In this document: in pieces, positions 1 to 19,905 of the stretch | How positions within the stretch are numbered: position 1 is the stretch's first letter | Layout of the letters: each line of letters begins with the position of its first letter | Source of the DNA: a virus | Length of the DNA stretch: 26,571 nucleotides | Virus record (IMG/VR): IMGVR_UViG_3300046012_000286 | Span: 1-26,571 of that record | Reading direction: 5' to 3' (one strand) | Program-made: the position numbers and the translations under genes | The notes under the pieces: generated by a model | What the model was told of the DNA's origin: nothing | The model's database searches: none | What the model saw: only the letters and a program-made list of their open reading frames with translations

Positions 1-719
1 AAGAAATATAGGGCTGGGCGCGCGCTGGATTTAAAACCCCGGGTCGAACTTTCCGACATGTCCGATACGCTGGGATAAAGAGCCCAAGAATTGCGACGAA
101 CGGGACGCCGGGAATGTGTCGGGAATGCCAGGCATATGCGGCTATCGGACGATCATACAATGACTAGTGCTGAGCAGGGCCGAGCAACATAACCGGCATT
201 ATGGTGTAGGCGAATGGCGCGCCGAATAGGCCGGAGAATGGGGCACGAGGCATCGATCTCCATCAAGTTGGGGTAGGCTAAGTTGGCTGTGCCGACTGTC
301 GCCCTGAGCAGGTGTGGGCAGGTGGGGAAGGGCGTTTGTGGCGTGGTGTGTGTGGCCGTGTAGGAGGAACGCGCGCGTGGCTGCGGTTGGCCGAATGGGG
401 GAGGTGTGGGTTGGCCGATCGTATGGTTTTGCAAGTTTGCTGGCTTTGGGGCTTGACGGGGTGAGCGTGGGAGGGGATTGTTTGGCCGGTACCGCTAAGC
501 ACGACGGATTGCCGGATGGTTTCGGTGGATCGGTAAGGCTGCGGGATGAGGGTTCGTTGACAATCGCAGAGTGGATCGCCCTGAGGATGCCGCGAGGCTT
601 TCGATTGGCCGCGTGTGGCACGGAGTGTTCCGGCGTTGACTTGTCCGCTGTTGAGCTGAACCGTGTACGTGTTGGCCGTGGCTCGGTTGGTTAGGGGCGT
701 TGTTTTCTCCCTTTGATCT
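1..719. other. Left-edge region without a convincing gene
   Basis: I see no gene here that I would defend. The longest rightward frame (314-694, GTG start) has no clear ribosome binding site, a Gly/Arg/Val/Trp-heavy composition and no recognisable motif. The leftward frames are Pro/His/Thr-rich, as expected of antisense shadows. A -10-like TACAAT occurs at 156-161 but has no matching -35 element at normal spacing. The heptamer TTGGCCG recurs about five times between 380 and 690 at irregular spacing. The region may hold the promoter for the rightward small-gene block, or a decayed gene, but neither can be shown. Confidence 0.5.
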
Positions 720-786
720 CTTAACGGAGATCATGGGAGCATCGATAGTCATTTGTGGTTATGGGTGCTCTCACATGTCCGTTAAG
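720..786 (+). promoter_or_regulatory. Three-tier intergenic stem-loop, copy 1
   Basis: Outer stem 720-728 with 778-786 is 9 perfect pairs (CTTAACGGA/TCCGTTAAG), extended by CATG/CATG (732-735 with 774-777). Middle stem 737-743 with 764-770 is 7 pairs. Apical stem 745-751 with 756-762 is 7 pairs around a TTTG loop. Its primary sequence is quite unlike the later copies, but the architecture is the same. A GAGAGGCGAGG ribosome binding site and the start of the first gene follow directly. Confidence 0.7.
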
Positions 787-802
787 CGAGAGGCGAGGTT
801 TG

Positions 803-1207
803 ATGATGAGCAGTGTTGAGGTTCGTTCGCCGCGTGAGATTGCCGCCGATTTGAAGGGCCGTCCGCATGCTGTTTCTCGGCTGTTGCTCGGTGGTGGCAC
901 GACTCAGTATCGGGCGGAGTTCGCGGCCGATTTTATGGGTTTGGTGCGCGAGTTTTTGAATGCGCCGCGTGAGTTGGTGGCGGATTTGGATGCCGATGAG
1001 ATGCCATGGAACGGGGCGGATTGGGTCCCGTTGCGGCGTGCGGTTGACCATTTTGACGATTTCAGCGATAGGTATGCCGCGTGGCGTGATTGTTGGGATG
1101 TTGTGCCAGCGGATCGGTTTGCGTATTCGGCGCAGCGGATGATTGAGATTGCGTGTGAGGTTGCGTTTATGTTGCGTACGTCGGAGGGGTTGGGGTATTG
1201 GGCGTGA
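803..1207 (+). CDS. Hypothetical phage protein, 134 aa
   Basis: I do not recognise this family. The frame is open from 755, but translation from there would run through the apical half of the stem-loop at 720-786. I therefore take the ATG at 803 (or the adjacent one at 806), which sits after GAGAGGCGAGG. The protein is acidic and soluble, with amphipathic helical stretches and many Trp/Arg/Asp residues. There is no signal peptide, membrane segment or metal-binding motif. The codons are strongly G/T-ending, like the rest of the 800-4350 block. It is the first gene of the rightward small-gene array, and the next stem-loop begins four bases after its stop. Function unknown. Confidence 0.75.
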   Translation: MMSSVEVRSPREIAADLKGRPHAVSRLLLGGGTTQYRAEFAADFMGLVREFLNAPRELVADLDADEMPWNGADWVPLRRAVDHFDDFSDRYAAWRDCWDVVPADRFAYSAQRMIEIACEVAFMLRTSEGLGYWA

Positions 1208-1210
1208 TTG

Positions 1211-1265
1211 ATTGAATGGTTTGTGTCATGCACACGATGGGTGTGTGTGGCGCTGAACATTCAAT
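1211..1265 (+). promoter_or_regulatory. Three-tier intergenic stem-loop, copy 2
   Basis: Outer stem 1211-1218 with 1258-1265 is 8 perfect pairs (ATTGAATG/CATTCAAT). An internal loop of GTTT against TGAA follows. Middle stem 1223-1228 with 1248-1253 is GTGTCA/TGGCGC, including two G-U pairs. Apical stem 1230-1235 with 1241-1246 is GCACAC/GTGTGT. The ribosome binding site GGGAGAG of the next gene begins three bases downstream. Confidence 0.8.
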
Positions 1266-1278
1266 TTGGGAGAGTGAG

Positions 1279-1542
1279 ATGATGGAAGGTTCGGCGGTTT
1301 TCATCGGCGATTGGCTGACTGTGCCTCGCGAGTTTAGCGGTCGGGTGGTGTCGCGGAACGGTGATGGTTGGTTTCTGCGAGACAAGGGTGGCGAGGTTGC
1401 CGGTCCGTGGGATGCTAGTGAGCTTTCCGATGATTCTCGGTGGTGCACGAATTGTTGTGAAGATGAGCAGGATCATTGCGGGGGCTGCGGTATTTGTTTC
1501 GGTCAGGAGTGCCCGAATTGGTGTGAGGATGACGTTTTGTGA
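1279..1542 (+). CDS. Small cysteine-rich protein, 87 aa
   Basis: The start is the ATG at 1279 (or 1282), six bases after GGGAG. The frame is open upstream to 1216 through the stem-loop, which I read as fortuitous. Residues 1-50 look like a small beta-rich domain. The C-terminal 32 residues hold eight cysteines (56, 59, 60, 67, 70, 73, 78, 82) in CxxCC, CxxCxxC and CxxxC spacing, together with many acidic residues. That pattern suggests binding of one or two zinc ions, or an iron-sulphur or disulphide-rich fold. I know no named family with this spacing. Its TGA stop at 1540 forms the first three bases of the next stem-loop. Function unknown. Confidence 0.8.
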   Translation: MMEGSAVFIGDWLTVPREFSGRVVSRNGDGWFLRDKGGEVAGPWDASELSDDSRWCTNCCEDEQDHCGGCGICFGQECPNWCEDDVL

Positions 1543-1593
1543 ATGGTTTTGGTCATTGACAAGCGTTGCTTGTCTTTGGCCATGGCACATTCA
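1540..1593 (+). promoter_or_regulatory. Three-tier intergenic stem-loop, copy 3
   Basis: Outer stem 1540-1545 with 1588-1593 is TGAATG/CATTCA, and the TGA is the stop codon of the preceding gene. The upstream internal loop is GTTTT. Middle stem 1551-1555 with 1577-1581 is GGTCA/TGGCC. Apical stem 1558-1564 with 1568-1574 is GACAAGC/GCTTGTC, seven perfect pairs around a GTT loop. The next gene's GGGGAG follows at 1600. Confidence 0.85.
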
Positions 1594-1612
1594 ATGATTG
1601 GGGAGAATGGCT

Positions 1613-2173
1613 ATGGATGTTGTGAATATCACTGCGCTTCTGCGGTCTAAGAGAAATTTCTTGGATTCGTGGGAGGCGACCATGGTCGACGGTAACAATA
1701 AGTATTTTACGGTTGTTATTGTTGACATGGCGCGTGGTGAGATTGTGAACACGGTTGCGACTATTCGCGTGTATCAGAACGGGGCGGGTAGTTGCCGTGT
1801 TCTAAAGCATGCGCCGGGTGGGCCGGATGAGGTTCATACTACCGAGGATTTTGACGCGGCTCTTGCATTGGTCGCCAGAAAGCCCATGTGTGCGTGTGGT
1901 GTTCCGAGTCGTGCGAATTGGTTTGTGCATGCGATCATCGGGAAGAATGTTCCGGGTGGTACTAAGACGGAATACACGGACATGTATGTGTGTGATGCGC
2001 ATTTCCCGACGATTCTTGACGATGGCGAGAATGCCGACCCCGATCGCTGCACGCTGCTTACGGAGGCAGATGAGGATTGGGAAAACTTGGCTCTCGCGGT
2101 GTGTGGCATGTTTGAGTTTGACAAGGCGGACGAGTGGGAGGTGTTGAAAGCGGAGGTGACACATATTCGCTGA
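1613..2173 (+). CDS. Hypothetical phage protein with Cys/His cluster, 186 aa
   Basis: The frame begins at a TTG at 1598, but the ATG at 1613 is the better start, seven bases after GGGGAG. The N-terminal half (residues 1-75) is predicted beta-rich. Around residue 95 there is a CxCG motif, and about 40 residues later a CDxH motif. This pairing is seen in small zinc-binding phage proteins, so zinc binding is plausible. The C-terminal third is acidic and helical. No catalytic signature is visible. Its TGA stop (2171-2173) is also the first three bases of the next stem-loop. Function unknown. Confidence 0.8.
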   Translation: MDVVNITALLRSKRNFLDSWEATMVDGNNKYFTVVIVDMARGEIVNTVATIRVYQNGAGSCRVLKHAPGGPDEVHTTEDFDAALALVARKPMCACGVPSRANWFVHAIIGKNVPGGTKTEYTDMYVCDAHFPTILDDGENADPDRCTLLTEADEDWENLALAVCGMFEFDKADEWEVLKAEVTHIR

Positions 2174-2220
2174 ATGGTTTTGCATCATGCACACATTGTG
2201 TGTGTGGTGTTCGGCATTCA
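2171..2220 (+). promoter_or_regulatory. Three-tier intergenic stem-loop, copy 4
   Basis: Outer stem 2171-2176 with 2215-2220 is TGAATG/CATTCA and again contains the preceding stop codon. The internal loop is GTTTT. Middle stem 2182-2187 with 2205-2210 is GCATCA/TGGTGT, with G-U pairs. Apical stem 2189-2194 with 2198-2203 is GCACAC/GTGTGT around an ATT loop. GGGAG at 2230-2234 follows. Confidence 0.85.
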
Positions 2221-2241
2221 GAACAGAATGGGAGAATGAAA

Positions 2242-2574
2242 GTGGCTAATGGGCGTACCGACTGGTACAAGGTGTCAGGCGATTTGATCACCGAGCTTAA
2301 TGCTTTGATGCACAAGCGTGGCATCATCGGCGAGGATGAGCGTTTCTGGTTGTCTGAGATTCCGCTTGTGGGAGCCGTCGGGTCTGAATGGTGCCTGAAG
2401 TTGGAACGTGGCCATGGGCGTCATGCGGAGATGGTTCGTTCATCGCCGAGGATTTCCACGGACCATGTTCGAGCTGTTTTGTGGCTACAGGGGTATGTGG
2501 CCGCGTGTTATCACTTGTTGGGTGATACGGCGGGTCACGAGTTTTTGCGCCCCAATGCAAAGGTAGGAGAGTAA
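2242..2574 (+). CDS. Hypothetical phage protein, 110 aa
   Basis: The frame is open from 2134. An ATG at 2236 lies only one base from the GGGAG box, whereas the GTG at 2242 has seven-base spacing, so I choose GTG. The protein is predicted mostly helical, with a hydrophobic C-terminal helix (around residues 75-95) that is too polar for a clear membrane segment. No known motif is visible. The next gene starts four bases after this stop, without a stem-loop between them, so those two are probably translated as a pair. Function unknown. Confidence 0.75.
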   Translation: MANGRTDWYKVSGDLITELNALMHKRGIIGEDERFWLSEIPLVGAVGSEWCLKLERGHGRHAEMVRSSPRISTDHVRAVLWLQGYVAACYHLLGDTAGHEFLRPNAKVGE

Positions 2575-2577
2575 GAG

Positions 2578-2790
2578 ATGGTTAGTGAGCGCGGGTATTA
2601 CGTCACCTATCCGGGGAGTCTGTCGAATCCGTCAAGGCTGTTTCGGGTGGTGAATTTTGAGGATTGGCTCACCTGGTTTAACGCTCCGACACATCGGCGG
2701 TTTCTGTTTCCGGTACATCCGGTGAGTGAGCACAAAACGTTTGCCGAGGCGGATGCGGCCTGCAATGTGTTGAATGGTGTCAAGGTCTGA
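2578..2790 (+). CDS. Small hypothetical protein, 70 aa
   Basis: The ATG at 2578 has a good ribosome binding site (GGTAGGAGAG) that lies in the end of the preceding gene, suggesting translational coupling. The protein is rich in aromatic residues and Pro and probably forms one small alpha/beta domain. A short stretch inside the gene near 2771 (TGAATGGTGTC) resembles the upstream arm of the intergenic stem-loops but has no partner arm. The stop lies inside the next stem-loop. Function unknown. Confidence 0.75.
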   Translation: MVSERGYYVTYPGSLSNPSRLFRVVNFEDWLTWFNAPTHRRFLFPVHPVSEHKTFAEADAACNVLNGVKV

Positions 2791-2842
2791 ATGGTTTTCA
2801 TCATAGGCAAGCCCTGGTTTGTCTGTGGTGATGAACATTTAG
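2787..2842 (+). promoter_or_regulatory. Three-tier intergenic stem-loop, copy 5
   Basis: Outer stem 2787-2793 with 2836-2842 is CTGAATG/CATTTAG, where one G-C pair of other copies has become G-U. The internal loop is GTTTT against ATGAA. Middle stem 2799-2803 with 2826-2830 is CATCA/TGGTG. Apical stem 2805-2812 with 2817-2824 is eight pairs around CCTG. The ribosome binding site GGGGAGAGAG follows at 2847. Confidence 0.85.
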
Positions 2843-2858
2843 TTTGGGGAGAGAGATT

Positions 2859-3167
2859 ATGTCTGTTGAGGTTGACTATGCCGCGTATTATCGGCGGTTG
2901 CTTGACGAGATGACCGATGTCCAAAAGGCGCGTGTGAAGGTGTTGCGGCATGAGGCAATCGGCTATGTGTGGGGTTGGCAGGATGCTAGAGGCGAAAAGG
3001 ACACTGGCGTGTCGCTCGATTTCGGGTATGCGTATGGTGCTCATGCTGCCGAGTACGCATTGGAACTGTTCGGCTGGCGTATGTCGCCTAGCGCGGCGTG
3101 GAAGTGTTGGCAAAAGGTTGGCCGTATCGAACGGGATTTCGGCGACGCTAAAGAGGAGAAGAACTGA
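2859..3167 (+). CDS. Hypothetical phage protein, 102 aa
   Basis: The ATG at 2859 has GGGGAGAGAG in ideal position, and this start leaves the stem-loop untranslated. The protein is mainly helical, with a Tyr/Trp-rich core and a basic C-terminal end. It has no cysteine cluster and no membrane segment. I do not recognise it. Its stop codon overlaps the next start by one base (TGATG at 3165-3169), so the next gene is translationally coupled to it. Function unknown. Confidence 0.8.
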   Translation: MSVEVDYAAYYRRLLDEMTDVQKARVKVLRHEAIGYVWGWQDARGEKDTGVSLDFGYAYGAHAAEYALELFGWRMSPSAAWKCWQKVGRIERDFGDAKEEKN

Positions 3168-3328
3168 TGGACCCTAACGAGGCGTTGAAGCGTCTACGTC
3201 TGATGATGGACTGGGATTGGTCCGAAGACGACATGGACGAGGTGAAGGAACTTTTTAACGGTCTTGACGAGTGGATTTCCAAGGGCGGGTTTCTGCCGAC
3301 GTCTTGGAACGCGGAAAGGGCAGTGTAA
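3167..3328 (+). CDS. Small 'MDPNE' family protein, 53 aa (first of tandem pair)
   Basis: This short gene starts at the ATG at 3167, overlapping the previous stop by one base, and ends at the TAA at 3326-3328. It opens with MDPNE and ends with LDEWISKGGFLPTSW, both shared with the protein encoded immediately downstream. The rest is an acidic helix. Similar MDPNE...LDEWL..GG.LP..W proteins are, as I recall, common in actinophages, with no known function. The 1-base overlaps at both ends (TGATG upstream, TAATG downstream) imply coupled translation. It is shorter than its paralogue because the middle segment is reduced. Confidence 0.8.
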   Translation: MDPNEALKRLRLMMDWDWSEDDMDEVKELFNGLDEWISKGGFLPTSWNAERAV

Positions 3329-3537
3329 TGGACCCTAACGAGAATTTGAGGCAGATCCGGGCGGCAGTCACCGGCTACTACGACGGACCGCTCACATCGG
3401 ATGAGGCTGTTGAAGCGTTGGCGCCGTTGGCTCAGGCGTTGGATGAATGGCTGTCTAAAGGTGGAGCTTTGCCGCACGACTGGCAGAACTGTGTACGGTG
3501 CGAGAATTGCCGCAGGGATAAGACGCACGGAATCTGA
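3328..3537 (+). CDS. Small 'MDPNE' family protein, 69 aa (second of tandem pair)
   Basis: The ATG at 3328 overlaps the preceding TAA (TAATG). The frame is open further upstream, but this is the only start that lines up with the paralogue just before it. It shares MDPNE at the start and LDEWLSKGGALPHDW near the end, and adds a C-terminal tail with a CxxCxxC pattern (residues about 56-62) that the 53-aa copy lacks. This is a clear local duplication with divergence. The predicted structure is a helical hairpin. Its stop codon lies inside the next stem-loop. Function unknown. Confidence 0.8.
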   Translation: MDPNENLRQIRAAVTGYYDGPLTSDEAVEALAPLAQALDEWLSKGGALPHDWQNCVRCENCRRDKTHGI

Positions 3538-3587
3538 ATGGTTTTGATGGTCGGCAACTTCGGTTGTCGTCTGTCATGGCAATTCAG
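3534..3587 (+). promoter_or_regulatory. Three-tier intergenic stem-loop, copy 6
   Basis: Outer stem 3534-3539 with 3582-3587 is CTGAAT/ATTCAG and includes the preceding stop codon. The internal loop begins GTTTT. Middle stem 3546-3550 with 3571-3575 is GATGG/CTGTC. Apical stem 3552-3558 with 3563-3569 is CGGCAAC/GTTGTCG, closed by a stable TTCG tetraloop. AGGGAGAG follows at 3594. Confidence 0.85.
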
Positions 3588-3606
3588 CCAGATAGGGAGA
3601 GCGCAA

Positions 3607-3879
3607 ATGAATCTCTGGAAGACACAAGCAATGTGGGAAGAGAAACGGAAAGGCATCGTTGTAGGTTCGATCGTGCGTGTCGACACTCTCAGCGAAGGCC
3701 CGTGGATTGGCCGTGTCACCCACGTCCACACTGAGCAGATCCAATACGTGGGTGGTACAGACTTCCGGCCTAACGGCATTCTGCGTGTGGAGGTGACTGA
3801 TCCTTTGGCGTCGCCTAAGAAGGTTGGCGAGTTTTGGGATGTCGGTACGATTGTCTGCTATCCGCAAGCCGACGACTGA
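3607..3879 (+). CDS. Hypothetical small beta-barrel-like protein, 90 aa
   Basis: The ATG at 3607 follows AGGGAGAG at good distance. The frame is open back to 3538 through the stem-loop, but I take that as chance. After a short helical N-terminus, residues 18-85 alternate hydrophobic and polar residues with Gly turns (GSIVRV, WIGRVTHV, ILRVEVTD), as in small SH3- or KOW-like beta barrels. This fold assignment is inference only. There is no catalytic motif. Function unknown. Confidence 0.75.
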   Translation: MNLWKTQAMWEEKRKGIVVGSIVRVDTLSEGPWIGRVTHVHTEQIQYVGGTDFRPNGILRVEVTDPLASPKKVGEFWDVGTIVCYPQADD

Positions 3880-3890
3880 GCCAGCAACGA

Positions 3891-3947
3891 TTGAACCGCT
3901 TTGATCGTAGGCAAGCCAATGGTTTGTCTACGGTCACGGCGGCTCAA
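3891..3947 (+). promoter_or_regulatory. Three-tier intergenic stem-loop, copy 7
   Basis: The middle and apical stems merge into one 15-pair helix, 3903-3917 with 3921-3935, closed by an AAT loop. The outer stem is 3891-3899 with 3939-3947 (TTGA/TCAA plus CCGC/GCGG, with one A/C mismatch). The TGAATGG sequence of other copies is replaced on both arms, which keeps pairing. A GGGGGAGAAGG ribosome binding site follows at 3964, spaced further away than in other copies. Confidence 0.8.
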
Positions 3948-3983
3948 ATTGTTTGGGTTGGCCGGGGGAGAAGGGCGCCACAC

Positions 3984-4184
3984 ATGGAACGAACCAATCT
4001 CGTTGTCTACTGGCGTCCAGCCGGATTCACGGGACTCATGCCGGTAACCGTTATCACGACGATGGCGGAAACACGGCAAGCCCTGGTGGATGTCGCAAGC
4101 GGTCTGGCTAAGCGAACGAGCACCAGTCACCGTATTTGCGTCTCATATGATCGGCTGGTTATCAAAAGTGAGGTGAGCGTATGA
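3984..4184 (+). CDS. Small hypothetical protein, 66 aa
   Basis: The ATG at 3984 is chosen because it follows GGGGGAGAAGGG, while earlier in-frame starts would translate through stem-loop copy 7. The protein is basic and predicted alpha/beta, with a conserved-looking helix around residues 28-45. No motif is recognisable. Its stop overlaps the next start as ATGA at 4181-4184, so the zinc-ribbon protein behind it is coupled. Function unknown. Confidence 0.7.
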   Translation: MERTNLVVYWRPAGFTGLMPVTVITTMAETRQALVDVASGLAKRTSTSHRICVSYDRLVIKSEVSV

Positions 4185-4354
4185 CTGTTTCCCCAAAGAC
4201 GGGGGACACTGCGATCTGTGCGAAGTGTGGTGAGGAACTGTTGTGGAATTCGATTACCAGCCAATGGGTGTTGCGTGATCCGGGTTTCAAGTTTCCGGGC
4301 GCGGTTTGCCGGGAGGGAGGTGATCACATTCCGAGGAAGCCTGGTAAGAGGTAG
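4181..4354 (+). CDS. Small zinc-ribbon-like protein, 57 aa
   Basis: It starts at the ATG of an ATGA overlap (4181) and ends at the TAG at 4352. A CxxC knuckle (Cys13, Cys16, in ICAKCGEEL) and a distal Cys43 with His49 suggest a single zinc-binding site. The basic C-terminal tail (RKPGKR) would suit nucleic-acid binding, but that is inference. Proteins of this size and pattern are frequent in actinophage early regions and are generally unannotated. The tRNA-like element begins 17 bases after the stop. Confidence 0.8.
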   Translation: MTVSPKTGDTAICAKCGEELLWNSITSQWVLRDPGFKFPGAVCREGGDHIPRKPGKR

Positions 4355-4371
4355 GTAGGTGGTACGGGGGA

Positions 4372-4422
4372 GCGCCGGTCGGCCGTTGGGGCTGTTGTTG
4401 GGGTTCGATTCCCCCCGGCGCA
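4372..4422 (+). ncRNA. Compact tRNA-like fold (51 nt), not a complete tRNA
   Basis: A perfect 7-pair acceptor-like stem joins 4372-4378 (GCGCCGG) to 4415-4421 (CCGGCGC) and is followed by A4422 in the discriminator position. Stacked directly on it, as in tRNA, is a T-arm: GGGG, the seven-base loop TTCGATT (4404-4410), CCCC. GGGGTTCGATTCCCC is the classical tRNA B-box pattern. Only 21 bases lie between the acceptor and the T-arm, enough for one 5-pair hairpin (4380-4384 with 4390-4394), so a D-arm or anticodon arm is missing and no anticodon can be assigned. No CCA follows. It could be a tRNA deletion remnant or a structured leader for the gene at 4446. Confidence 0.5.
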
Positions 4423-4445
4423 CGCAAATATTGAAGGAGGAAAAT

Positions 4446-4646
4446 ATGGGTGACCGTCAGACGGTAAGTTTCCGCACCAGCCCCGACCTGTGGCGGGAAG
4501 TGAAGACCACATGTGCACAGGAGGGAATCAAAATCAATGATTGGATGAACGCTGCCATGGAAGAAAAACTTGCCCGTGAGCAGGAAGAACGCATGGCGAG
4601 ACTTCTTGGCAATTCGCAGCTTGACATTCCGCAAACCGAAAGCTAG
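4446..4646 (+). CDS. Ribbon-helix-helix DNA-binding protein, 66 aa
   Basis: The ATG at 4446 has a strong AAGGAGG Shine-Dalgarno site. The frame is open back to 4359 but would cross the tRNA-like fold. Residues 5-10 (TVSFRT) form a beta strand and are followed by two helices (PDLWREVKTTCAQEG, then INDWMNAAMEEKLARE), the Arc/CopG/MetJ arrangement. Such proteins bind DNA as dimers through the paired strands and often act as autoregulators or plasmid- and phage-encoded repressors. It is the only clear specific-regulator fold in this block and precedes the Lsr2-like gene. The operator is unknown. Confidence 0.8.
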   Translation: MGDRQTVSFRTSPDLWREVKTTCAQEGIKINDWMNAAMEEKLAREQEERMARLLGNSQLDIPQTES

Positions 4647-4708
4647 ATTCGTTCCACTGCGTTAAACCCCCCGCACAACAAACAACCGCACCGAGGGAGA
4701 TTCACAAA

Positions 4709-5335
4709 ATGGCAAAGCGTACCGTACTCATCGTCGACGACCTGTCCGGCGTAGCCACCCCGGAAGAGGAATTGAAGGAAATTGAGTACGCTCACCCGGT
4801 GAACGGCAAGACGTACCTTCTCCTCACCACCGACGAAAACTTCGCCAAGTTCCTGATCAAGGTTACCAAAGAGACGGACAAGATGGAGGGGATTCGCAAC
4901 CAGGCATTCGAGGCTTTCGAGGAGACGCGCAAGGCTGCCAGTGAGGTTTACGACGCTGCGATCGCCGCTGCGGCTGAGGAACGGAAGAAGCTCACCTTGG
5001 ACCTTGGCGCACCTGTAGAGGCGGCAATTGCCAAGGCTGCCAAGGGTTACGCCGATTGGGAAGAGAAGCGCATGCCTGCCCGTGGTGGCCGTGCGTCTGG
5101 TTCCGGTGATCCTGAGCGTGCCCGTGAAATCGCGATCGGCAAGGCCCGTGCGGCATTCGTTCAGTCTGACGCGGCGTACGACATCGGCGGCTCTCAGATG
5201 CGCGCCTACATCAAGCAGCGGCGGTTGAAGCCCAAGGGCCGGATGAACAACGTTCTGGCTGACTGGCTGGACACGCCGGAGATCCGCGCCATGTGGTACC
5301 CGGCCGAGTTGGACTCTCAGCCCTCGCTCGTCTAG
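4709..5335 (+). CDS. Lsr2-like nucleoid-associated protein, 208 aa
   Basis: Residues 1-60 (MAKRTVLIVDDLSG, then a VNGKTYLLLTTDENFAKFL segment) match the Lsr2 N-terminal dimerisation/oligomerisation domain in its beta strands and following helix. The C-terminus, about residues 170-205, resembles the Lsr2 DNA-binding helix pair, with KGR in place of the AT-hook-like RGR loop. Between them lies a long Ala/Glu/Lys-rich helical insert (residues 60-165), which makes it almost twice the length of host Lsr2. Lsr2 proteins silence AT-rich foreign DNA in actinobacteria. Phage copies may mimic or antagonise host Lsr2, or organise phage DNA. The start has GAGGGAG upstream. It is the last gene before a strong terminator. 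Confidence 0.8.
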   Translation: MAKRTVLIVDDLSGVATPEEELKEIEYAHPVNGKTYLLLTTDENFAKFLIKVTKETDKMEGIRNQAFEAFEETRKAASEVYDAAIAAAAEERKKLTLDLGAPVEAAIAKAAKGYADWEEKRMPARGGRASGSGDPERAREIAIGKARAAFVQSDAAYDIGGSQMRAYIKQRRLKPKGRMNNVLADWLDTPEIRAMWYPAELDSQPSLV

Positions 5336-5360
5336 CCCCTACCCCGTACCACCCCACATA

Positions 5361-5399
5361 AAGAAAAGGCCCTAGGTGAAGCTCCTAGGGCCTTTTCTT
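5361..5399 (+). terminator. Strong bidirectional intrinsic terminator
   Basis: A 16-pair perfect stem (5361-5376 with 5384-5399) surrounds a 7-base loop. The outer part is AAGAAAAGG/CCTTTTCTT, which gives a U-rich tail in both directions. It closes the rightward block that ends with the Lsr2-like gene. Confidence 0.92.
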
Positions 5400-5528
5400 G
5401 TGCCCTTCTGCCTACCGCTTCAACACCCCGGGTATGCGGAACCTGGTTGTCTACGTGCGGTCGGAACCGGCAGCTACAGGGGGACGTCCCTGCAAGGCAC
5501 ACACGGACAGTACCGCCAGCTCCCCCGG

Positions 5529-5940: not shown

Positions 5941-6492
5941 CTACACCTGCGAATTCAACACATCCCGCAACCGGCCAACCGCCCGCGACACATTCCGCCG
6001 CACCAACGCGTCCACCTCCACCAAACACTGAGGCCCGTACACTTCCCACAACAGCACCTGATCCTGCTCACACAGGCCCTCATAGGCCCGTTGCACGTCA
6101 ACAATCTCCATATGCTTAACCGACCCTACCGGCGACCTCGGCACGTCGTCTTCCCACATCAAAGGCAACAATGCACGCACCAGGCCGGCGGTGTAGAACG
6201 CTTCATCCTCAACCGCATAACCGCAACGTTCTGCTTTCTCCGCCCGCGCATAGTTGGCAATCTCCCGACGGACCGAAAGCCGAACATAGTTTCGGCCACG
6301 TTCCGTGTCCAAACGTTCCACAAATTCTTGACGGCCGCCCATGTACGCAGCCCAACCCTCTTGCACACAGTCGTCCCACTCGACCGGCGGATTGCGGCCA
6401 GCATTCGCGGCCTGGTTCGCGAACCCCCAAAAGACCCGCTCGGCTGCCCGTTCAATCAAACCCTGCGCCGTCTCAAACTCTTCAACCGTCAT
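5941..6492 (-). CDS. Sigma-70-like transcription factor, 183 aa
   Basis: The start is the ATG at 6492, which overlaps the upstream stop as ATGA. A GTG at 6501 is a longer alternative. Residues about 38-90 (EWDDCVQEGW, then RNYVRLSVRREIANYARAE) have the helix pattern of sigma region 2. The C-terminus (LCEQDQVLLWEVYG, then VRRNVSRAVGRLRDVLN) resembles the region 4 helix-turn-helix. Small sigma-like proteins of this kind occur in actinophages and could redirect host RNA polymerase to later phage promoters. It is the last gene of the long leftward operon, so it would be made after the replication genes. The promoter specificity is unknown. Confidence 0.65.
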   Translation of the reverse strand: MTVEEFETAQGLIERAAERVFWGFANQAANAGRNPPVEWDDCVQEGWAAYMGGRQEFVERLDTERGRNYVRLSVRREIANYARAEKAERCGYAVEDEAFYTAGLVRALLPLMWEDDVPRSPVGSVKHMEIVDVQRAYEGLCEQDQVLLWEVYGPQCLVEVDALVRRNVSRAVGRLRDVLNSQV

Positions 6493-7232
6493 GGCATCCA
6501 CTTACGGCCCCCCCACAAAAACGAGCCGTCATTGCCGATCTTCACAAACTCTGGAGCCACCATGTTGCCTTCAACGTGAAGAATGCCGAAACCGAGTTGC
6601 CAATCCGGGTTCATCACATAGCTTGCGTCTTTGGTATTCATCAGATGGCCGCATTCCATTCCCCAACGAGTCTTATCTCCAATGGTCCGGTAAACAATTC
6701 CGGCGCGGTGAGTGTGGCCGTGCACGACATTTCGATTGAACCGTTCAAGGTGCGCGTGAGCTGTATATCCCGAATACTTTCTAACTGCAATCCCGTGGAC
6801 AGAGACTGTGCCAGGGGCAATATTGTAAGGCTGCGGTTCGGTAATCCACCCATATTCTTTCGCCTCCGTCAAAACATCGTACGAAAGAACGTCCAAACCT
6901 TGGAGCCCGTGCGCGTGTTGGGTCAAATAGTTGTCGAGCCGGTCATCGTGATTGCCTTTGATCCGGGTCTTCTTGCCACCCCACGCCTTGTTCAACGCCT
7001 CATTGAATTCACGCCCGGCCCGTAGCTCGTTCTGCAAACTCTTGCCATTTTCCGCAGGTGTGCCTTTCACCCAACGTGATACGGCCGTGAAATCGTAGAA
7101 GTCGCCGATCTGGTGTACTTGTTCAATCCGCGGGGCGTTATCCGCTATCCAGTTGAACATGGAATTGACTGCACGTCTGTGCGTGTACGGCAACTGTGTG
7201 TCGGAGATAATCGGAATCATTGTGCAAACCAT
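6489..7232 (-). CDS. Calcineurin-like metallophosphoesterase, 247 aa
   Basis: All the expected metal-binding motifs are present in order: ISDTQ (D11, with Gln replacing the usual His), GDFYD (D44, D47), GNHD (N94-H95-D96) and HGHTH (H171, H173, H175). The enzyme class hydrolyses phosphomonoesters or phosphodiesters with two metal ions. Substrates of phage versions are generally unknown; DNA or RNA ends or signalling nucleotides are possible. The start is the ATG at 7232, just after the preceding small gene's stop, and ATG 7220 is an alternative. The 3' end overlaps the sigma-like gene. It is cytoplasmic, with no signal peptide. Confidence 0.9.
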   Translation of the reverse strand: MVCTMIPIISDTQLPYTHRRAVNSMFNWIADNAPRIEQVHQIGDFYDFTAVSRWVKGTPAENGKSLQNELRAGREFNEALNKAWGGKKTRIKGNHDDRLDNYLTQHAHGLQGLDVLSYDVLTEAKEYGWITEPQPYNIAPGTVSVHGIAVRKYSGYTAHAHLERFNRNVVHGHTHRAGIVYRTIGDKTRWGMECGHLMNTKDASYVMNPDWQLGFGILHVEGNMVAPEFVKIGNDGSFLWGGRKWMP

Positions 7233-7950: not shown

Positions 7951-8601
7951 TCATTCTTCCCCCGAGTCTTCTAACAAGGCAACAAAATATCCGGCCCCCT
8001 GCGAACAGAATACCGAATTGACATCATGCCCGGCAGGCAAACGCATAACTTCAACGGTACGCACCCGCTCCTGCCACCGTTTTGCCATTTCCGAACCGGC
8101 CTTATCCCCGTCAGGCCATACACACACCCTGTCGAAACCGGCTAGATGAAACGGCCAATGGTCCCGCCATAAGGATGCCGTCGGGAGTCCAATAACGGGG
8201 TCCGTGACAATGGTGGACAGTATGATCGTATCAATTTCGCCTTCGCAGATGTGGAGCGTTTCGGAATCGCTGTCCAACGCCAGTACGTTGAACAAACCAA
8301 GTTCTTGCCCGTCCGGGTTGAGATACTTTTTGCAATTCTCCTGCTTGCAATCACTATGCGCCAGGCAGCGAAACTTGTAACTGCAAATCCCGATACGGTC
8401 AATGTAGGGGATAGCCAACCGGCCCACATACTGTTCATAGCCCTTGACGCCATCCGATACGACGCCGAGCCGGTACGCCATCGCGGTCTCGTCGCCGATT
8501 CCTCGCTCCGCCAAAAAGTTCATCGCCGGACCCAGATTGTTCTGGAAGATCCGCGCCGCTTTCTCCATACCGGTCCGCTGCCTCTTGCTTGGCTTCCACA
8601 T
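7951..8601 (-). CDS. DNA primase TOPRIM half, 216 aa
   Basis: Residues 115-170 form a TOPRIM domain: HICEGEID with catalytic Glu120, then VWPDGDKAG with Asp164 and Asp166. This is the metal-dependent catalytic core of DnaG-type primases, and AGHDVNS near residue 190 is the usual following motif. Residues 14-50 (helix, then AERGIGDETAMAYRLGVV) are the typical linker after the zinc domain. The zinc domain itself is in the overlapping upstream gene, in a frame one base away. ATG 8601 follows GGGGGTGGG; ATG 8568 would fit the conserved region more tightly. Primer synthesis would need both halves. Confidence 0.85.
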   Translation of the reverse strand: MWKPSKRQRTGMEKAARIFQNNLGPAMNFLAERGIGDETAMAYRLGVVSDGVKGYEQYVGRLAIPYIDRIGICSYKFRCLAHSDCKQENCKKYLNPDGQELGLFNVLALDSDSETLHICEGEIDTIILSTIVTDPVIGLPTASLWRDHWPFHLAGFDRVCVWPDGDKAGSEMAKRWQERVRTVEVMRLPAGHDVNSVFCSQGAGYFVALLEDSGEE

Positions 8602-8803
8602 ATCCCACCCCCGTTCTGAGCATGATCAGTCCGATAACGTCCTCATGGATGCCGCATGTAAAACAATGGAACCGGCCCTTTTGCTCATTCAAAGAAGCCG
8701 ACGCATTCCGGTCCTTGTGGAACGGGCAACGCATGTAGCGCCAACCTGCACCACTCGGCGGCACCTGGCCGCCCTGGTCTTCAAGATAATCCCGAATCCC
8801 CAC
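8435..8803 (-). CDS. DNA primase CHC2 zinc-finger half, 122 aa
   Basis: This is the DnaG-type zinc-binding domain, with Cys26-x-x-His29 (RCPFHKDRN) and Cys47-x-x-Cys50 (FHCFTCGIHEDVIGLI). Residues up to about 80 are homologous in pattern to primases. After RYGE the frame becomes Gly/Arg-rich and looks non-conserved, while conserved primase sequence continues in the +1 frame of the next gene. The 167-base overlap therefore suggests a split primase or a +1 ribosomal frameshift product. ATG 8803 overlaps the RusA-like gene by 23 bases. Confidence 0.85.
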   Translation of the reverse strand: MGIRDYLEDQGGQVPPSGAGWRYMRCPFHKDRNASASLNEQKGRFHCFTCGIHEDVIGLIMLRTGVGYVEAKQEAADRYGESGADLPEQSGSGDELFGGARNRRRDRDGVPARRRIGWRQGL

Positions 8804-9207: not shown

Positions 9208-9489
9208 TCAGGCGGCGATAGCTTCGGCCGGGTCTTCAACGGTGTTACCTTCAACGATATTTGCGGCACGTTCTCGCAGTTCTTGCAGGAGCTCCAACGC
9301 CCGTTCAATTGCAAGGGTCAGAGGTGAAAGCTTCGGCTCCGCAATGTTCTTTGCAGCGTTCCGAATGTCTTCCGCAGCCGCATAGTCGTGCGCAAACGAC
9401 AGGGCTTCAACGAGAATGTTGAGGTTGTATTCTTGGCCCTTGACCGTCAGTTCAAACTTTGGCATCGTGTTGAAACCGTTTTCAGACAT
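9208..9489 (-). CDS. Hypothetical helical protein, 93 aa
   Basis: The ATG at 9489 follows GGGGGTGGG and overlaps the RNA ligase gene end by 8 bases. A second Met at residue 9 is a possible start. A short beta strand pair (KFELTVKGQEYNLNI) is followed by Ala/Glu/Leu-rich helices to the end, which may form a coiled coil (TLAIERALELLQELRERAA). No domain is recognisable. By position between ligase and RusA it may be a DNA/RNA metabolism accessory factor, but that is only context. Confidence 0.75.
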   Translation of the reverse strand: MSENGFNTMPKFELTVKGQEYNLNILVEALSFAHDYAAAEDIRNAAKNIAEPKLSPLTLAIERALELLQELRERAANIVEGNTVEDPAEAIAA

Positions 9490-10108
9490 TGCCCACCCCC
9501 ACCATGTTCACACTCTTCGGAATTTCGTCACCCTCGCACAAAACCTTGAACCGTTCCCCCGACTGGGAATGACGCAGCACAATCCCCTCCGGCTGGCTGT
9601 ATCCCTTTGAGATCAGCGACCCTTCATCGCGGAGGAAATCTAGGCTGTCTGCGATCTGCTCATTGATGTTTGCGCCGTTGTGCCGACCGAGGAGGGGCAC
9701 CACATCCACACCAGGCGGCATCATCCTCTTCTCGTACTTGTTCACGTCAAACAACGCAAACCGCTTCTCCGCCAGCCCGTAGCCGCGTTGAATACCGGAC
9801 CCGTACCACTCCCCGAAATGGCGTCCTTTACCCAGCGTGGCAAGGAAAGGCCCCCACTCTTGAGCCCACTTCGCAAAGCCGTGGTTGTCTTCCTTGACCG
9901 TCAGCCAGCGGGTACGAGATCCGGCGTACAGGTAAAGCAGCGTGTCCTCACCGGTACCAAGATTCAGAAGACTGTCCTGCCCTAGACAGAATTCGGGATG
10001 GTATTCGTCGTGCCACAAAAGAATCCCGTTCGTACCGTCAACCTTTTCGGTGATTTCCCAATCCCGCTGGAAGCGGGAGATCTTGCTCCACCTCACAAAA
10101 TCAATCAA
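9482..10108 (-). CDS. RNA ligase (Rnl2-like nucleotidyltransferase), 208 aa
   Basis: The nucleotidyltransferase motifs are in order: motif I EKVDGTNG with the nucleophile Lys22, motif III FGEWYG (Glu100), motif IIIa RFALFDV, motif IV EGIVLRH (Glu174), and motif V ERFKV (Lys188). This is the adenylyl-transfer core of T4 Rnl2-type RNA ligases, which seal nicked or broken RNA. There is no separate C-terminal domain, so it is a minimal ligase. A start at TTG 10108 is forced, since an in-frame TGA lies two codons upstream. AAAGGA lies about 18 bases away, so initiation is probably weak or coupled. A phage role in repairing host-cleaved tRNA is possible. Confidence 0.88.
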   Translation of the reverse strand: MIDFVRWSKISRFQRDWEITEKVDGTNGILLWHDEYHPEFCLGQDSLLNLGTGEDTLLYLYAGSRTRWLTVKEDNHGFAKWAQEWGPFLATLGKGRHFGEWYGSGIQRGYGLAEKRFALFDVNKYEKRMMPPGVDVVPLLGRHNGANINEQIADSLDFLRDEGSLISKGYSQPEGIVLRHSQSGERFKVLCEGDEIPKSVNMVGVGNV

Positions 10109-10132: not shown

Positions 10133-10471
10133 CTAGACGGCTTCTGCCCTTGAATTTCGTTCCCTCGCCAGCATCTCCCCAACGGTCTCCGGATAAGAAA
10201 CCTCCGCACGCGGCTCTGAGCCCACCGGAACGTTAGGAAACGCAGCCACAGCCCCGCTAGGACTTTCAAAAACCAGACGAGTTGCGCCACCATGCCCATG
10301 AATATGAACCACACTGCCGACTCCATCGGGGTGGACGGTTGTGGTGCGATAAGCGCCGACAATCCAATGGATAACAGCAGTGCCATCGGAAAACTCGATC
10401 CCCTCACAGACAACCCCCGTACCCGAAACCCCGGTAATGTCATCCTCCCGCACCAGCCGAAACGTTCTCAT
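10133..10471 (-). CDS. Hypothetical phage protein, 112 aa (small beta-rich)
   Basis: The start ATG at 10471 overlaps the upstream stop (ATGA). The sequence opens MRTFRLVREDDITGVSGTG and continues with EFSDGTAVIHWIVGAYRTTTVHPDG and HIHGHGGATRLVFE, a pattern I recall from many actinophage proteins of about this size that are annotated as hypothetical. It is predicted to be one beta-rich domain. The C-terminal tail is charged (ETVGEMLARERNSRAEAV). The biochemical function is unknown. Confidence 0.8.
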   Translation of the reverse strand: MRTFRLVREDDITGVSGTGVVCEGIEFSDGTAVIHWIVGAYRTTTVHPDGVGSVVHIHGHGGATRLVFESPSGAVAAFPNVPVGSEPRAEVSYPETVGEMLARERNSRAEAV

Positions 10472-10860
10472 GCCTTGACCTTGGAAAGAAACGTGTGCTC
10501 AACCGCATCTGCGATCTCGGCAAAAGGCATCCCCAACAGGTCATTCAGCTCGGTAAGAAACTCGCGCTGTAGTAGTCCTGCCCTGTCCACGTAATCAACC
10601 ATCGGAGACATGGCGGTAATCCCCAACCATTCCATAACAGCGCGTGGCAGATGTACCGAATGCTGGTCGTAGTAGTAAACGGAGGTGTCGCGTTTCACAT
10701 CCATTTGCACACCGTTGCGGAGCGCCACCTCACACGCCACCCCAAGACAGCAATACTTTCCGTCTTGAGCCAGCGCTCCTTTCCCCTGCACATAGTCACC
10801 AGACCGCAAGGCTTCAACCCACCGCCTCACGTTGCCCTGATTCACAACCTCATCTGTCAT
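10468..10860 (-). CDS. 'KYCCLGVAC' family protein, 130 aa (paralogue 3 of 3)
   Basis: It shares with its two upstream neighbours a helix RRWVEALRSGDYVQG, then KYCCLGVACEVA, then LPRAVMEWLGI, and at the end LTELNDL...PFAEIADAVE. The family is widespread in phages and some bacteria and, to my knowledge, has no established function. The CCLGVAC core suggests a buried cysteine pair and not a zinc ribbon. The ATG at 10860 overlaps the upstream stop (ATGA). It is closest in sequence to paralogue 2 (10857-11252). Confidence 0.85.
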   Translation of the reverse strand: MTDEVVNQGNVRRWVEALRSGDYVQGKGALAQDGKYCCLGVACEVALRNGVQMDVKRDTSVYYYDQHSVHLPRAVMEWLGITAMSPMVDYVDRAGLLQREFLTELNDLLGMPFAEIADAVEHTFLSKVKA

Positions 10861-11252
10861 GCCGCCACCTCCACATGATCGGAAAGGTATGTACGTTCAA
10901 TGGCGTCTGCGATTTCGGCAAACGGCATTTCCACCAGATCATTCAACTCGGTAAGATACTGGCGTTCCATTCCGTCGCCGACCACGATGTCAACGGAGGG
11001 CGAATGTGCGGCAAGCCCCAACCAGTCGACAACGGCAGGCGGCAAATCGGCCCTGTGCTTGTCGTAGTGGGTCACGACGCCATGATGTACCTTCATCTTG
11101 ACACCGTTGCGAATGGCAACCTCACAGGCCACGCCAAGACAGCAGTACTTGCCCTTTGAAGCGAGCACCATTCGGCCCTGCTCGTATTCACCAGACCGCA
11201 GAGCGTCAACCCAAAGGCGGATGTTTTCGCGATTCAAAACCGGATCTGTCAT
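10857..11252 (-). CDS. 'KYCCLGVAC' family protein, 131 aa (paralogue 2 of 3)
   Basis: The same architecture as its neighbours is visible: IRLWVDALRSGEYEQG, KYCCLGVACEVAIRNGV, LPPAVVDWLGL, LTELNDLVEMPFAEIADAIE. Over its full length it is similar to the 130-aa paralogue, with differences concentrated in the segment between the Cys motif and the LP..V..WLG helix, which may be the specificity region. Both ends are ATGA overlaps, so the three genes are translationally coupled. Function unknown. Confidence 0.85.
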   Translation of the reverse strand: MTDPVLNRENIRLWVDALRSGEYEQGRMVLASKGKYCCLGVACEVAIRNGVKMKVHHGVVTHYDKHRADLPPAVVDWLGLAAHSPSVDIVVGDGMERQYLTELNDLVEMPFAEIADAIERTYLSDHVEVAA

Positions 11253-11713
11253 GCCGCTACCAGCTCACTATCAACCGCCGGATAGCGGGCATCGATCATG
11301 TCGGCAATCTCCGGGAAACCGAACGCCCCGTCATCGTTAAGCTGGATCAGCGTGTACTGCGTCCCCTGGTACTCCACCCACGGATTGCGCGAATCAAGCC
11401 CATACCAGTCGGCAACTTCTATCGGCAGATAGCTCACCTCCCGCGCATACCGGATCGCATGCACCCTTTCACGCTTACTGCCATTAACCATGTACGGGTA
11501 CTCATCGGCGACGCGGGTAATGTTCAAACCATTCTCGTACGCCACCTGGCATGCGACCCCGAGGCAGCAATACTTTTCACCATCGCACAACACCCGCTGA
11601 GCCTGCGCATACTTGCCGGAACGAAGTGCCTCAGTCCACAGGCGGATACGGTCCACATCGGGAACAACGTTCAGCTCTGCGCATTGCATCGGATCAAACT
11701 CGTGCGTAACCAT
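11249..11713 (-). CDS. 'KYCCLGVAC' family protein, 154 aa (paralogue 1 of 3, divergent)
   Basis: This is the first and most divergent of the triplet. It has RIRLWTEALRSGKYAQA, EKYCCLGVACQVAYENG, LPIEVADWYGL and LIQLNDD...FPEIADMID, but also a longer N-terminus and an expanded middle with basic residues (NGSKRERVHAIRYAREV). ATG 11713 follows GGGGGTGG at seven bases and overlaps the helicase gene by 20 bases. ATG 11689 would remove the overlap. Function unknown. Confidence 0.82.
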   Translation of the reverse strand: MVTHEFDPMQCAELNVVPDVDRIRLWTEALRSGKYAQAQRVLCDGEKYCCLGVACQVAYENGLNITRVADEYPYMVNGSKRERVHAIRYAREVSYLPIEVADWYGLDSRNPWVEYQGTQYTLIQLNDDGAFGFPEIADMIDARYPAVDSELVAA

Positions 11714-19434: not shown

Positions 19435-19905
19435 ATGGCAGCCGCCCCTTTCGATTTCCGCCACACCCATACCGCCCTGTTGATCACGTGGGCCGATAAG
19501 CTACGAGACCAGTACCAAGCGGACGAAAACGGAGCAATGCTCCGAATGTACGTAGCAGTGCGGCTCGTTGAAGATCAGATTGTGCGCTTCATGCTGGCCG
19601 CTGGCCGCGAGTCCTGGTCGCCAACACTCGGCATCGTTGGAGGTGACAAGGATCTATCTGGCCTGATGGACGTATGCGCCGAAGAGGCTTGGGCCTGCCT
19701 GGCAGCGCACGAGGTCACGGCCATGAAGGTTGTTGCTAACTGGCAAACATCGGAGTGCCGATGTTTTGGAGTTGACAACACCTTTGACCTGCGCATACCG
19801 TTTGCTACATGGAACTACATATACCAGGTACACGATGCCTTGAGTGCGCGCGGCTCAGTCACGAGCAAGACGGCTCTACTTCAATCGAAATGCAATTGGA
19901 AATAG
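19435..19905 (+). CDS. Hypothetical protein overlapping the integrase start, 156 aa
   Basis: It starts at ATG 19435 with a poor ribosome binding site and overlaps the integrase gene by 97 bases. The first 120 residues look protein-like, with amphipathic helices (LLITWADKLRDQYQADENG, MYVAVRLVEDQIVRFML, LMDVCAEEAWACLAAHEV). The last 30 residues lie antiparallel in function to nothing known and share sequence with the integrase 5' end in another frame. Its role may be translational coupling to, or regulation of, integration. Not recognised. Confidence 0.6.
   Translation: MAAAPFDFRHTHTALLITWADKLRDQYQADENGAMLRMYVAVRLVEDQIVRFMLAAGRESWSPTLGIVGGDKDLSGLMDVCAEEAWACLAAHEVTAMKVVANWQTSECRCFGVDNTFDLRIPFATWNYIYQVHDALSARGSVTSKTALLQSKCNWK

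What the first reader, a model, noticed from the sequence alone, without database searches (positions are those of the whole stretch)
720..3947. Seven covarying three-tier stem-loops in the intergenic gaps of one operon
Seven gaps hold an RNA-like fold of the same plan: outer stem (mostly TGAATG/CATTCA), short internal loop (GTTTT on the 5' side in most copies), middle stem, apical stem with a 3-5 base loop, and then a GGGGAGAG-type ribosome binding site. The apical stems differ in sequence but keep pairing: GACAAGC/GCTTGTC, GCACAC/GTGTGT, AGGCAAGC/GTTTGTCT, CGGCAAC/GTTGTCG with a TTCG loop, and ATAGTCA/TGGTTAT. Copy 1 keeps the plan with almost no shared sequence. Such compensatory change argues for selection on RNA structure. 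Gaps where genes overlap lack a copy. The closest precedent I know is the SAS/ESAS repeats of cluster K mycobacteriophages. Possible roles are RNase processing sites that segment the operon, translation control, or a binding site for a phage regulator.
Basis: partly seen in the sequence, partly recalled or inferred. Interest (0 to 1): 0.87.

Follow-up and report, generated by a model that had tools for sequence, protein, structure and literature searches.

The report
RNA hairpins punctuating a phage operon
A phage of actinobacteria places a long, base-pair-conserved RNA hairpin between almost every pair of genes in one operon, a related group of Streptomyces phages does the same with different sequences, and the hairpins most likely act as cutting sites that divide one long messenger RNA into separate messages, as in phage T7.

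Summary
All seven stem-loops are where stated and fold far better than shuffles. In copies 2-7, 95% of pair cells are standard, 13 of 22 pairs change on both sides, and slid controls pair at 30-42%. Mismatches are 24 G·U to 1 A·C, so selection acts on the transcribed strand's RNA, not on a DNA palindrome. A U·G wobble is invariant in copies 2-7. Copy 1 is similar in plan but is not found by a covariance model of the others. The same design, unreported in the papers searched, fills all 62 gaps of at least 45 nt in the positionally equivalent operon of seven Streptomyces Beephvirinae phages. There the hairpin is a 26-position rod, and (A)AGG(G)GAGAG follows in 53 of 62 gaps. Nineteen of 22 pairs covary. 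Size, internal loop and place match T7's five early RNase III sites. SAS/ESAS is the wrong precedent: there is no SAS sequence and no promoter. Best explanation: RNase III-type intercistronic processing signals placed at the stop codon, leaving a short leader with the ribosome-binding site (0.5). Cleavage itself is not shown. New variant of a known kind.

The parts
721..785 (+). Copy 1: leader stem-loop before the first gene; outer TTAACGGA/TCCGTTAA, inner GGGAGCATC-G-ATAGTCA/TGGTTAT-G-GGTGCTCTC
   Evidence: (z -4.9); not hit by model R1
1210..1266 (+). Copy 2: 13-bp inner stem, 4/4 internal loop, 9-bp outer stem
   Evidence: (z -6.4)
1540..1593 (+). Copy 3: starts at the TGA stop (1540-1542); 7 bp, UU/UU, 6 bp, internal loop, 6 bp
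   Evidence: (z -5.2)
2170..2221 (+). Copy 4: overlaps the stop TGA 2171-2173; 13 bp, 5/4 internal loop, 7 bp
   Evidence: (z -3.7)
2787..2842 (+). Copy 5: overlaps the stop TGA 2788-2790; 15 bp, 4/4 internal loop, 7 bp
   Evidence: (z -4.7)
3534..3587 (+). Copy 6: overlaps the stop TGA 3535-3537; UUCG loop, 7 bp, U.U mismatch, 6 bp, internal loop, outer stem
   Evidence: z -2.9; best hit of the Beephvirinae model in 600-5400, E 0.013
3891..3947 (+). Copy 7: 16-bp inner stem; longest outer helix, extendable to about 3876-3965
   Evidence: z -7.6; E 0.098
1267..1274 (+). Shine-Dalgarno TGGGAGAG just after copy 2
1600..1607 (+). Shine-Dalgarno GGGGAGAA after copy 3
2230..2236 (+). Shine-Dalgarno GGGAGAA after copy 4; start probably GTG 2242
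2846..2853 (+). Shine-Dalgarno GGGGAGAG after copy 5
3594..3601 (+). Shine-Dalgarno AGGGAGAG after copy 6
3965..3972 (+). Shine-Dalgarno GGGGAGAA after copy 7
803..5335 (+). The operon: 13 small genes of unknown function (803-1207, 1279-1542, 1613-2173, 2242-2574, 2578-2790, 2859-3167, 3167-3328, 3328-3537, 3607-3879, 3984-4184, 4181-4354, 4447-4646, 4709-5335)
   Evidence: no Pfam hit above a curated cut-off and, of the ten genes scanned, one clear PHROG match
5360..5400 (.). Perfect GC-rich hairpin flanked by A/T tracts: intrinsic terminator at the operon end, unlike copies 1-7
5944..7232 (-). Sigma-like protein and metallophosphoesterase converging on the operon, the same order as in Beephvirinae

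Best explanation
The copies are one family of RNA processing signals in a polycistronic phage mRNA. The hairpin starts at or just after the stop codon of the upstream gene and ends a few bases before the next Shine-Dalgarno. It forms an irregular rod of 20-26 bp with an internal loop about 13-16 bp from the apex. Host RNase III (AbsB-type in Streptomyces hosts) would bind the rod and cut at or near the internal loop. The inner hairpin would remain as a 3' cap on the upstream message, and the downstream gene would be left with a short 5' leader carrying GGGGAGAG. Shown: structure, covariation, strand, placement, recurrence in Beephvirinae, and geometry like T7 R sites. Inferred: transcription as one operon, cleavage, the nuclease, and effects on stability and translation.
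For: Covariation in the window and in Beephvirinae (19 of 22 pairs, covariation score 0.68 against 0.19 shuffled). G.U to A.C of 24 to 1, binomial p 8e-7, or 0.002 after correcting for base composition. In Beephvirinae, all 62 gaps analysed hold structures, mean z per phage -3.1 to -4.1, against -1.7 for 22 gaps elsewhere in the same phages, none with that SD. In gaps under 130 nt the mRNA strand is the more stable in 32 of 42. T7's five early gaps, run through the same finder, give rods of 47-53 nt and 18-21 bp with inner stem, internal loop and outer stem, two of them beginning at a stop codon; the window gives 52-65 nt and 20-26 bp. Literature: R1.1 is a 60-nt hairpin with a 4/5 internal loop between T7 genes 1.0 and 1.1 (PMC6121014), and T7 early mRNA is cut at five sites by RNase III (PMC4858673). 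Tight spacing: the stem starts -1 to +14 nt from the stop codon, with an SD 3-17 nt after the stem.
Against: No RNA-seq or cleavage data exist for this phage or were found for Beephvirinae. RNase III has little sequence specificity, so the fit to T7 is one of shape. The conserved U.G, U.U and A.C/A.G positions are more constrained than a nuclease needs. The freshwater relative ct2KA10 manages its operon without such elements, so the function is dispensable in the lineage.
Confidence: 0.5

Rival explanations
1. Translational insulators: the rods stop terminating ribosomes from sliding on and present a standby surface beside a strong Shine-Dalgarno, so that each gene is initiated independently. 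No cleavage is needed.
For: The outer stem overlaps the stop codon in four copies and the SD follows 3-8 nt after the stem in six of seven copies. A near-invariant AAGG(G)GAGAG SD follows the rods in Beephvirinae. Gene pairs that overlap and can couple lack a rod.
Against: It does not explain a fixed internal loop and fixed mismatches about 15 bp from the apex, nor a rod before the first gene (copy 1).
Confidence: 0.25
2. Binding site for a phage (or host) RNA-binding protein that represses or activates translation of the whole set.
For: Invariant U.G wobble in copies 2-7. In Beephvirinae, U.G (10 of 16) or unpaired, mostly U.U (6), at rod position 12, G.U at 15, and A.C or A.G at 16.
Against: The apical loop sequence is not conserved in the window, no candidate RNA-binding gene is identified, and the Shine-Dalgarno lies outside the structure.
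Confidence: 0.15
3. DNA-level inverted repeats (operators or promoters), like the ESAS of cluster K.
For: Inverted repeats upstream of starts in a non-structural operon, as in cluster K and EF phages (PMC3203893, PMC7302621).
Against: 24 G.U to 1 A.C. No promoter-like site in any copy and only two in 1-5500, the chance number. No SAS sequence. Two to four tiers with internal loops.
Confidence: 0.05
4. Partial (U-less, I-shaped) terminators or attenuators that create polarity.
For: Strong hairpins without U tracts are discussed as I-shaped terminators in GC-rich bacteria (PMC8269248).
Against: None of the seven stems is followed by a U tract, the stems carry internal loops, and the operon ends in an ordinary terminator at 5360-5400.
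Confidence: 0.05

Closest known systems
Phage T7 early-region RNase III processing signals (R0.3, R0.5, R1, R1.1, R1.3)
   Same: Irregular hairpins of about 50 nt in the gaps of an early polycistronic operon, inner stem / internal loop / outer stem, some beginning at the upstream stop codon, copies related to each other in sequence (PMC6121014; PMC4858673).
   Different: Different host phylum and sequence, no demonstrated cleavage, somewhat longer rods (20-26 against 18-21 bp), and a conserved wobble.
Unreported intergenic rods of Streptomyces Beephvirinae (Manuel, Immanuel3, FlowerPower, Dennebes, RosePharie, Stella, Abafar)
   Same: Positionally equivalent operon, rod in every gap of at least 45 nt, three or four tiers, GGGGAGAG Shine-Dalgarno.
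   Different: Different sequence: the window model does not hit them, and their model hits only window copies 6 and 7, weakly. More regular register.
SAS/ESAS of cluster K mycobacteriophages and cluster EF Microbacterium phages
   Same: Repeated intergenic inverted repeats before Shine-Dalgarno regions of non-structural genes (PMC3203893, PMC7302621).
   Different: 13-mer GGGATAGGAGCCC absent. ESAS holds SigA-like promoter hexamers (PMC11373665), absent here.
Selective RNA processing and stabilisation by intergenic stem-loops (e.g. Clostridium cellulolyticum cip-cel operon, PMC4423207)
   Same: Stem-loops in operon gaps thought to set message ends and stability.
   Different: Cellular operon in another phylum with unrelated sequence; known here from titles and abstracts only.

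Membership tests
T7-type RNase III processing signals | Lies in gaps between genes of one co-directional early-type operon | tested here: met
   'early' timing is inferred
T7-type RNase III processing signals | Irregular hairpin of about 20 bp with an internal loop between inner and outer stem | tested here: met
   same finder run on T7 and on the window
T7-type RNase III processing signals | Cut by RNase III in vivo at the internal loop | not testable with these tools
   needs end mapping in wild type and rnc mutant
SAS/ESAS (cluster K) | 13-bp GGGATAGGAGCCC at the ribosome-binding site | tested here: not met
   6 matches with up to 3 mismatches, 6.2 expected, none at the copies
SAS/ESAS (cluster K) | SigA-like -35/-10 within the inverted repeat | tested here: not met
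   two sites in 1-5500 (chance 2.5), none in copies
SAS/ESAS (cluster K) | Inverted repeat just upstream of starts of non-structural genes | tested here: met
Beephvirinae intergenic rods | Hit by a covariance model of the rods | tested here: inconclusive
   copies 6 and 7 rank first and second in 600-5400 with E 0.013 and 0.098; the others are not hit at full length
Beephvirinae intergenic rods | Same register of pairs and mismatches from the loop | tested here: inconclusive
   pair order similar for copies 2, 3 and 5 (p 0.01 or less); mismatch positions agree only for copies 3 and 5 (all copies together p 0.22)
Intrinsic terminator | GC-rich hairpin followed by a U tract | tested here: not met
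Any Rfam 15 family | Score at or above the gathering cut-off | tested here: not met

The most novel reading that the evidence does not exclude
A widespread, undescribed class of structured intercistronic RNA in actinophages: sequence turns over almost completely while a rod of about 26 positions with a fixed wobble and mismatches is kept. It would be read by a dedicated machinery (RNase III or a phage factor) that divides early mRNA into single-gene messages and is independent of what the genes encode.
Probability: 0.4. Interest if true: 0.78.

Novelty: new variant of a known kind. Interest (0 to 1): 0.64.

Why it matters
Small orphan genes in actinophage operons are common, and how they are expressed separately is little known. 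A covariation-backed RNA element in every real gap of a culturable phage group makes the question directly testable, because Beephvirinae grow on laboratory Streptomyces in which RNase III (AbsB) has been studied. It would show T7-style RNA punctuation outside Enterobacteria phages, and it would separate RNA elements from the promoter-type repeats (ESAS) with which such repeats are now grouped.

Tried and rejected
Close relatives: none found by DNA or by single operon or helicase proteins. A pattern scan for TGAATGGTTTTG... in viral contigs gave 22 hits, none with the fold. Tail-protein relatives: 534 in viral contigs, none confirmed in genomes. Model R1 gave no hit in 45 related records. Freshwater kin (ct2KA10 and three long contigs) lack a systematic series. 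The nearest contig G001 is a fragment without the operon. Prophages of Catellatospora and Micromonospora with a related helicase show no such gaps. SAS, promoters and terminators and Rfam were rejected. Exact homology of window and Beephvirinae rods was tested and left open. An attempt to include copy 1 in the structural alignment failed.

Full report
What the window is. The window is a 26,571-base virus record from an actinobacterial phage, probably temperate: it has a large serine integrase (19809-21482), a DnaB-like helicase, a primase, a RusA-like resolvase, an exonuclease and an RNA ligase. Its nearest named kin are distant. Its tail protein is 33-35% identical over full length to Streptomyces Beephvirinae and to ct2KA10. 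The operon 803-5335 holds 13 small genes. Of the ten scanned, none has a Pfam hit above a curated cut-off, and only one (3328-3537) has a clear PHROG match.

The observation. All seven stem-loops were read and folded. They are much more stable than dinucleotide shuffles (z -2.9 to -7.6). A hand-made structural alignment of copies 2-7, padded with N so that the aligner leaves it alone, gives 95.3% standard pairs. 13 of 22 pairs have changes on both sides, and 0/500 shuffles reach any of the five measures. Sliding the 3' partners by 1-3 columns drops pairing to 30-42%. The alignment was made to fit the structure and the copies are paralogues, so these figures lean in its favour; the gap is nevertheless large. 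A covariance model of copies 2-7 finds only those six on the + strand, at 48-60 bits. Copy 1 shares the plan, a U.G wobble and a GCATC/GGTG piece with copy 4, but it is not recovered by the model.

RNA, not DNA. If the repeats were DNA palindromes, G.T and A.C mismatches should be about equally common. In the stems there are 24 G.U and 1 A.C (p 8e-7; 0.002 against the G+T-rich composition of the strand). One wobble, U.G at the fourth pair of the middle stem counted from its base, is invariant in copies 2-7. No promoter-like site lies in the copies.

Placement. In copies 3-6 the outer stem begins one base before or exactly at the stop codon of the upstream gene; in 2 and 7 it begins 7 and 14 nt after its first base. 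The Shine-Dalgarno follows 3-8 nt after the stem (17 for copy 7). Junctions that overlap or leave <=3 nt have no copy. The two last real gaps (4355-4446, 4647-4708) have none either, and the operon ends with an ordinary terminator hairpin (5360-5400).

The same design elsewhere. In Beephvirinae the operon in the equivalent place, converging on a metallophosphoesterase and a sigma-like gene as in the window, has 62 co-directional gaps of at least 45 nt in seven phages. All were folded: mean z per phage -3.1 to -4.1. (A)AGG(G)GAGAG ends 53 of the 62 gaps. Twenty-two gaps elsewhere in the same phages have mean z -1.7 and none has that Shine-Dalgarno. Anchored on the loop, the regular hairpins form an ungapped rod of 26 positions: stem 1-8, usually U.U at 9, stem 10-15 with U.G or U.U at 12, A.C or A.G at 16, a pair at 17, a mismatch (mostly pyrimidines) at 18, stem 19-25. 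On 16 of them, chosen by hand for regularity, 19 of 22 pairs change on both sides (77 cells against 20.7 in shuffles). The model built from them (R2) finds further copies in the same operon. None of the 13 window operon proteins has a match in these phages, so the design persists while coding content turns over. I found no mention of it in the papers searched, including the Abafar paper; the library holds open-licence papers only.

Are window and Beephvirinae rods one family? The plan, the place and the Shine-Dalgarno agree. R2 run over 600-5400 of the window ranks copies 6 and 7 first and second, full length, but weakly (E 0.013 and 0.098). A permutation test of pair order against the Beephvirinae profile is positive for copies 2, 3 and 5 and negative for 4, 6 and 7. 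Mismatch positions agree only for copies 3 and 5. Common descent is possible; common function with convergent or fast-evolving sequence is equally compatible.

How it most likely works. T7's five early gaps, run through the same hairpin finder, give rods of 47-53 nt with 18-21 bp: an inner stem of 9-13 bp, an internal loop, and an outer stem, two starting at the upstream stop codon (the identity of these five gaps as the RNase III sites is from my own knowledge apart from R1.1). R1.1 is described as a 60-nt RNA with a 4/5 internal loop between genes 1.0 and 1.1, and T7 early mRNA is cut at five sites by RNase III into messages of one or two genes. The window rods span 52-65 nt with 20-26 bp, and copies 2, 4 and 5 have internal loops of 4/4, 5/4 and 4/4. 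I therefore infer cutting at the internal loop by host RNase III. That would leave the inner hairpin as a 3' end on the upstream message and a short leader with the Shine-Dalgarno on the downstream one. Shown: structure, covariation, strand, placement, recurrence, geometry. Inferred: transcription unit, cleavage, enzyme, consequence.

Rivals. Translational insulation explains the stop codon and Shine-Dalgarno placement but not the fixed internal loop or the leader copy. A protein-binding site would explain the conserved wobble and mismatches, but no partner is known. DNA operators and terminators are disfavoured.

Limits. There is one window genome, an unknown host, no expression data, hand-made alignments, and no close relatives of the window phage in any collection searched. 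Freshwater kin lack the series, so it is not universal in the lineage.

Noticed in passing
window 4371-4422 (+): tRNA-like stretch in the next operon gap: T-arm GGGGTTCGATTCCCC and acceptor-like GCGCCGG/CCGGCGC without a D arm. Weak Rfam matches to mascRNA (E 1.9) and the tmRNA 3' end (E 0.024). The minimum-energy fold is no better than chance.
   Followed up: partly
L024 (ct2KA10, OX376641) 23538-23586: A similar cloverleaf without D arm (acceptor, one arm, T-like arm GTTCGAGAC) in a gap of the equivalent operon; z -4.1; not called by ARAGORN.
   Followed up: partly
L025 (Streptomyces phage Stella) 39936-40044 (-): Rfam finds a piece of bacterial 16S rRNA (model positions 106-311, 85 bits) near the right end of this phage genome.
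   Followed up: no
window 7951-8601 and 8435-8803 (-): The primase is split into two overlapping frames, as in the Beephvirinae; possibly a programmed frameshift.
   Followed up: no
window 10468-11713 (-): Three related genes in tandem (10468-10860, 10857-11252, 11249-11713) whose products share motifs such as 'GKYCCLGVAC' or close variants.
   Followed up: no
window 3167-3537 (+): Two adjacent genes start with the same MDPNE; the 69-residue second one matches a PHROG called HNH endonuclease (phrog_865, E 5e-17), which looks too short for an endonuclease.
   Followed up: no
window 4709-5335 (+): The last operon gene has a weak Lsr2-dimerisation-like N-terminus (Pfam E 0.006, below cut-off).
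   Followed up: no
window 9482-10108 (-): An RNA ligase (phrog_548), with a 42%-identical relative in a Catellatospora prophage, L122.
   Followed up: no
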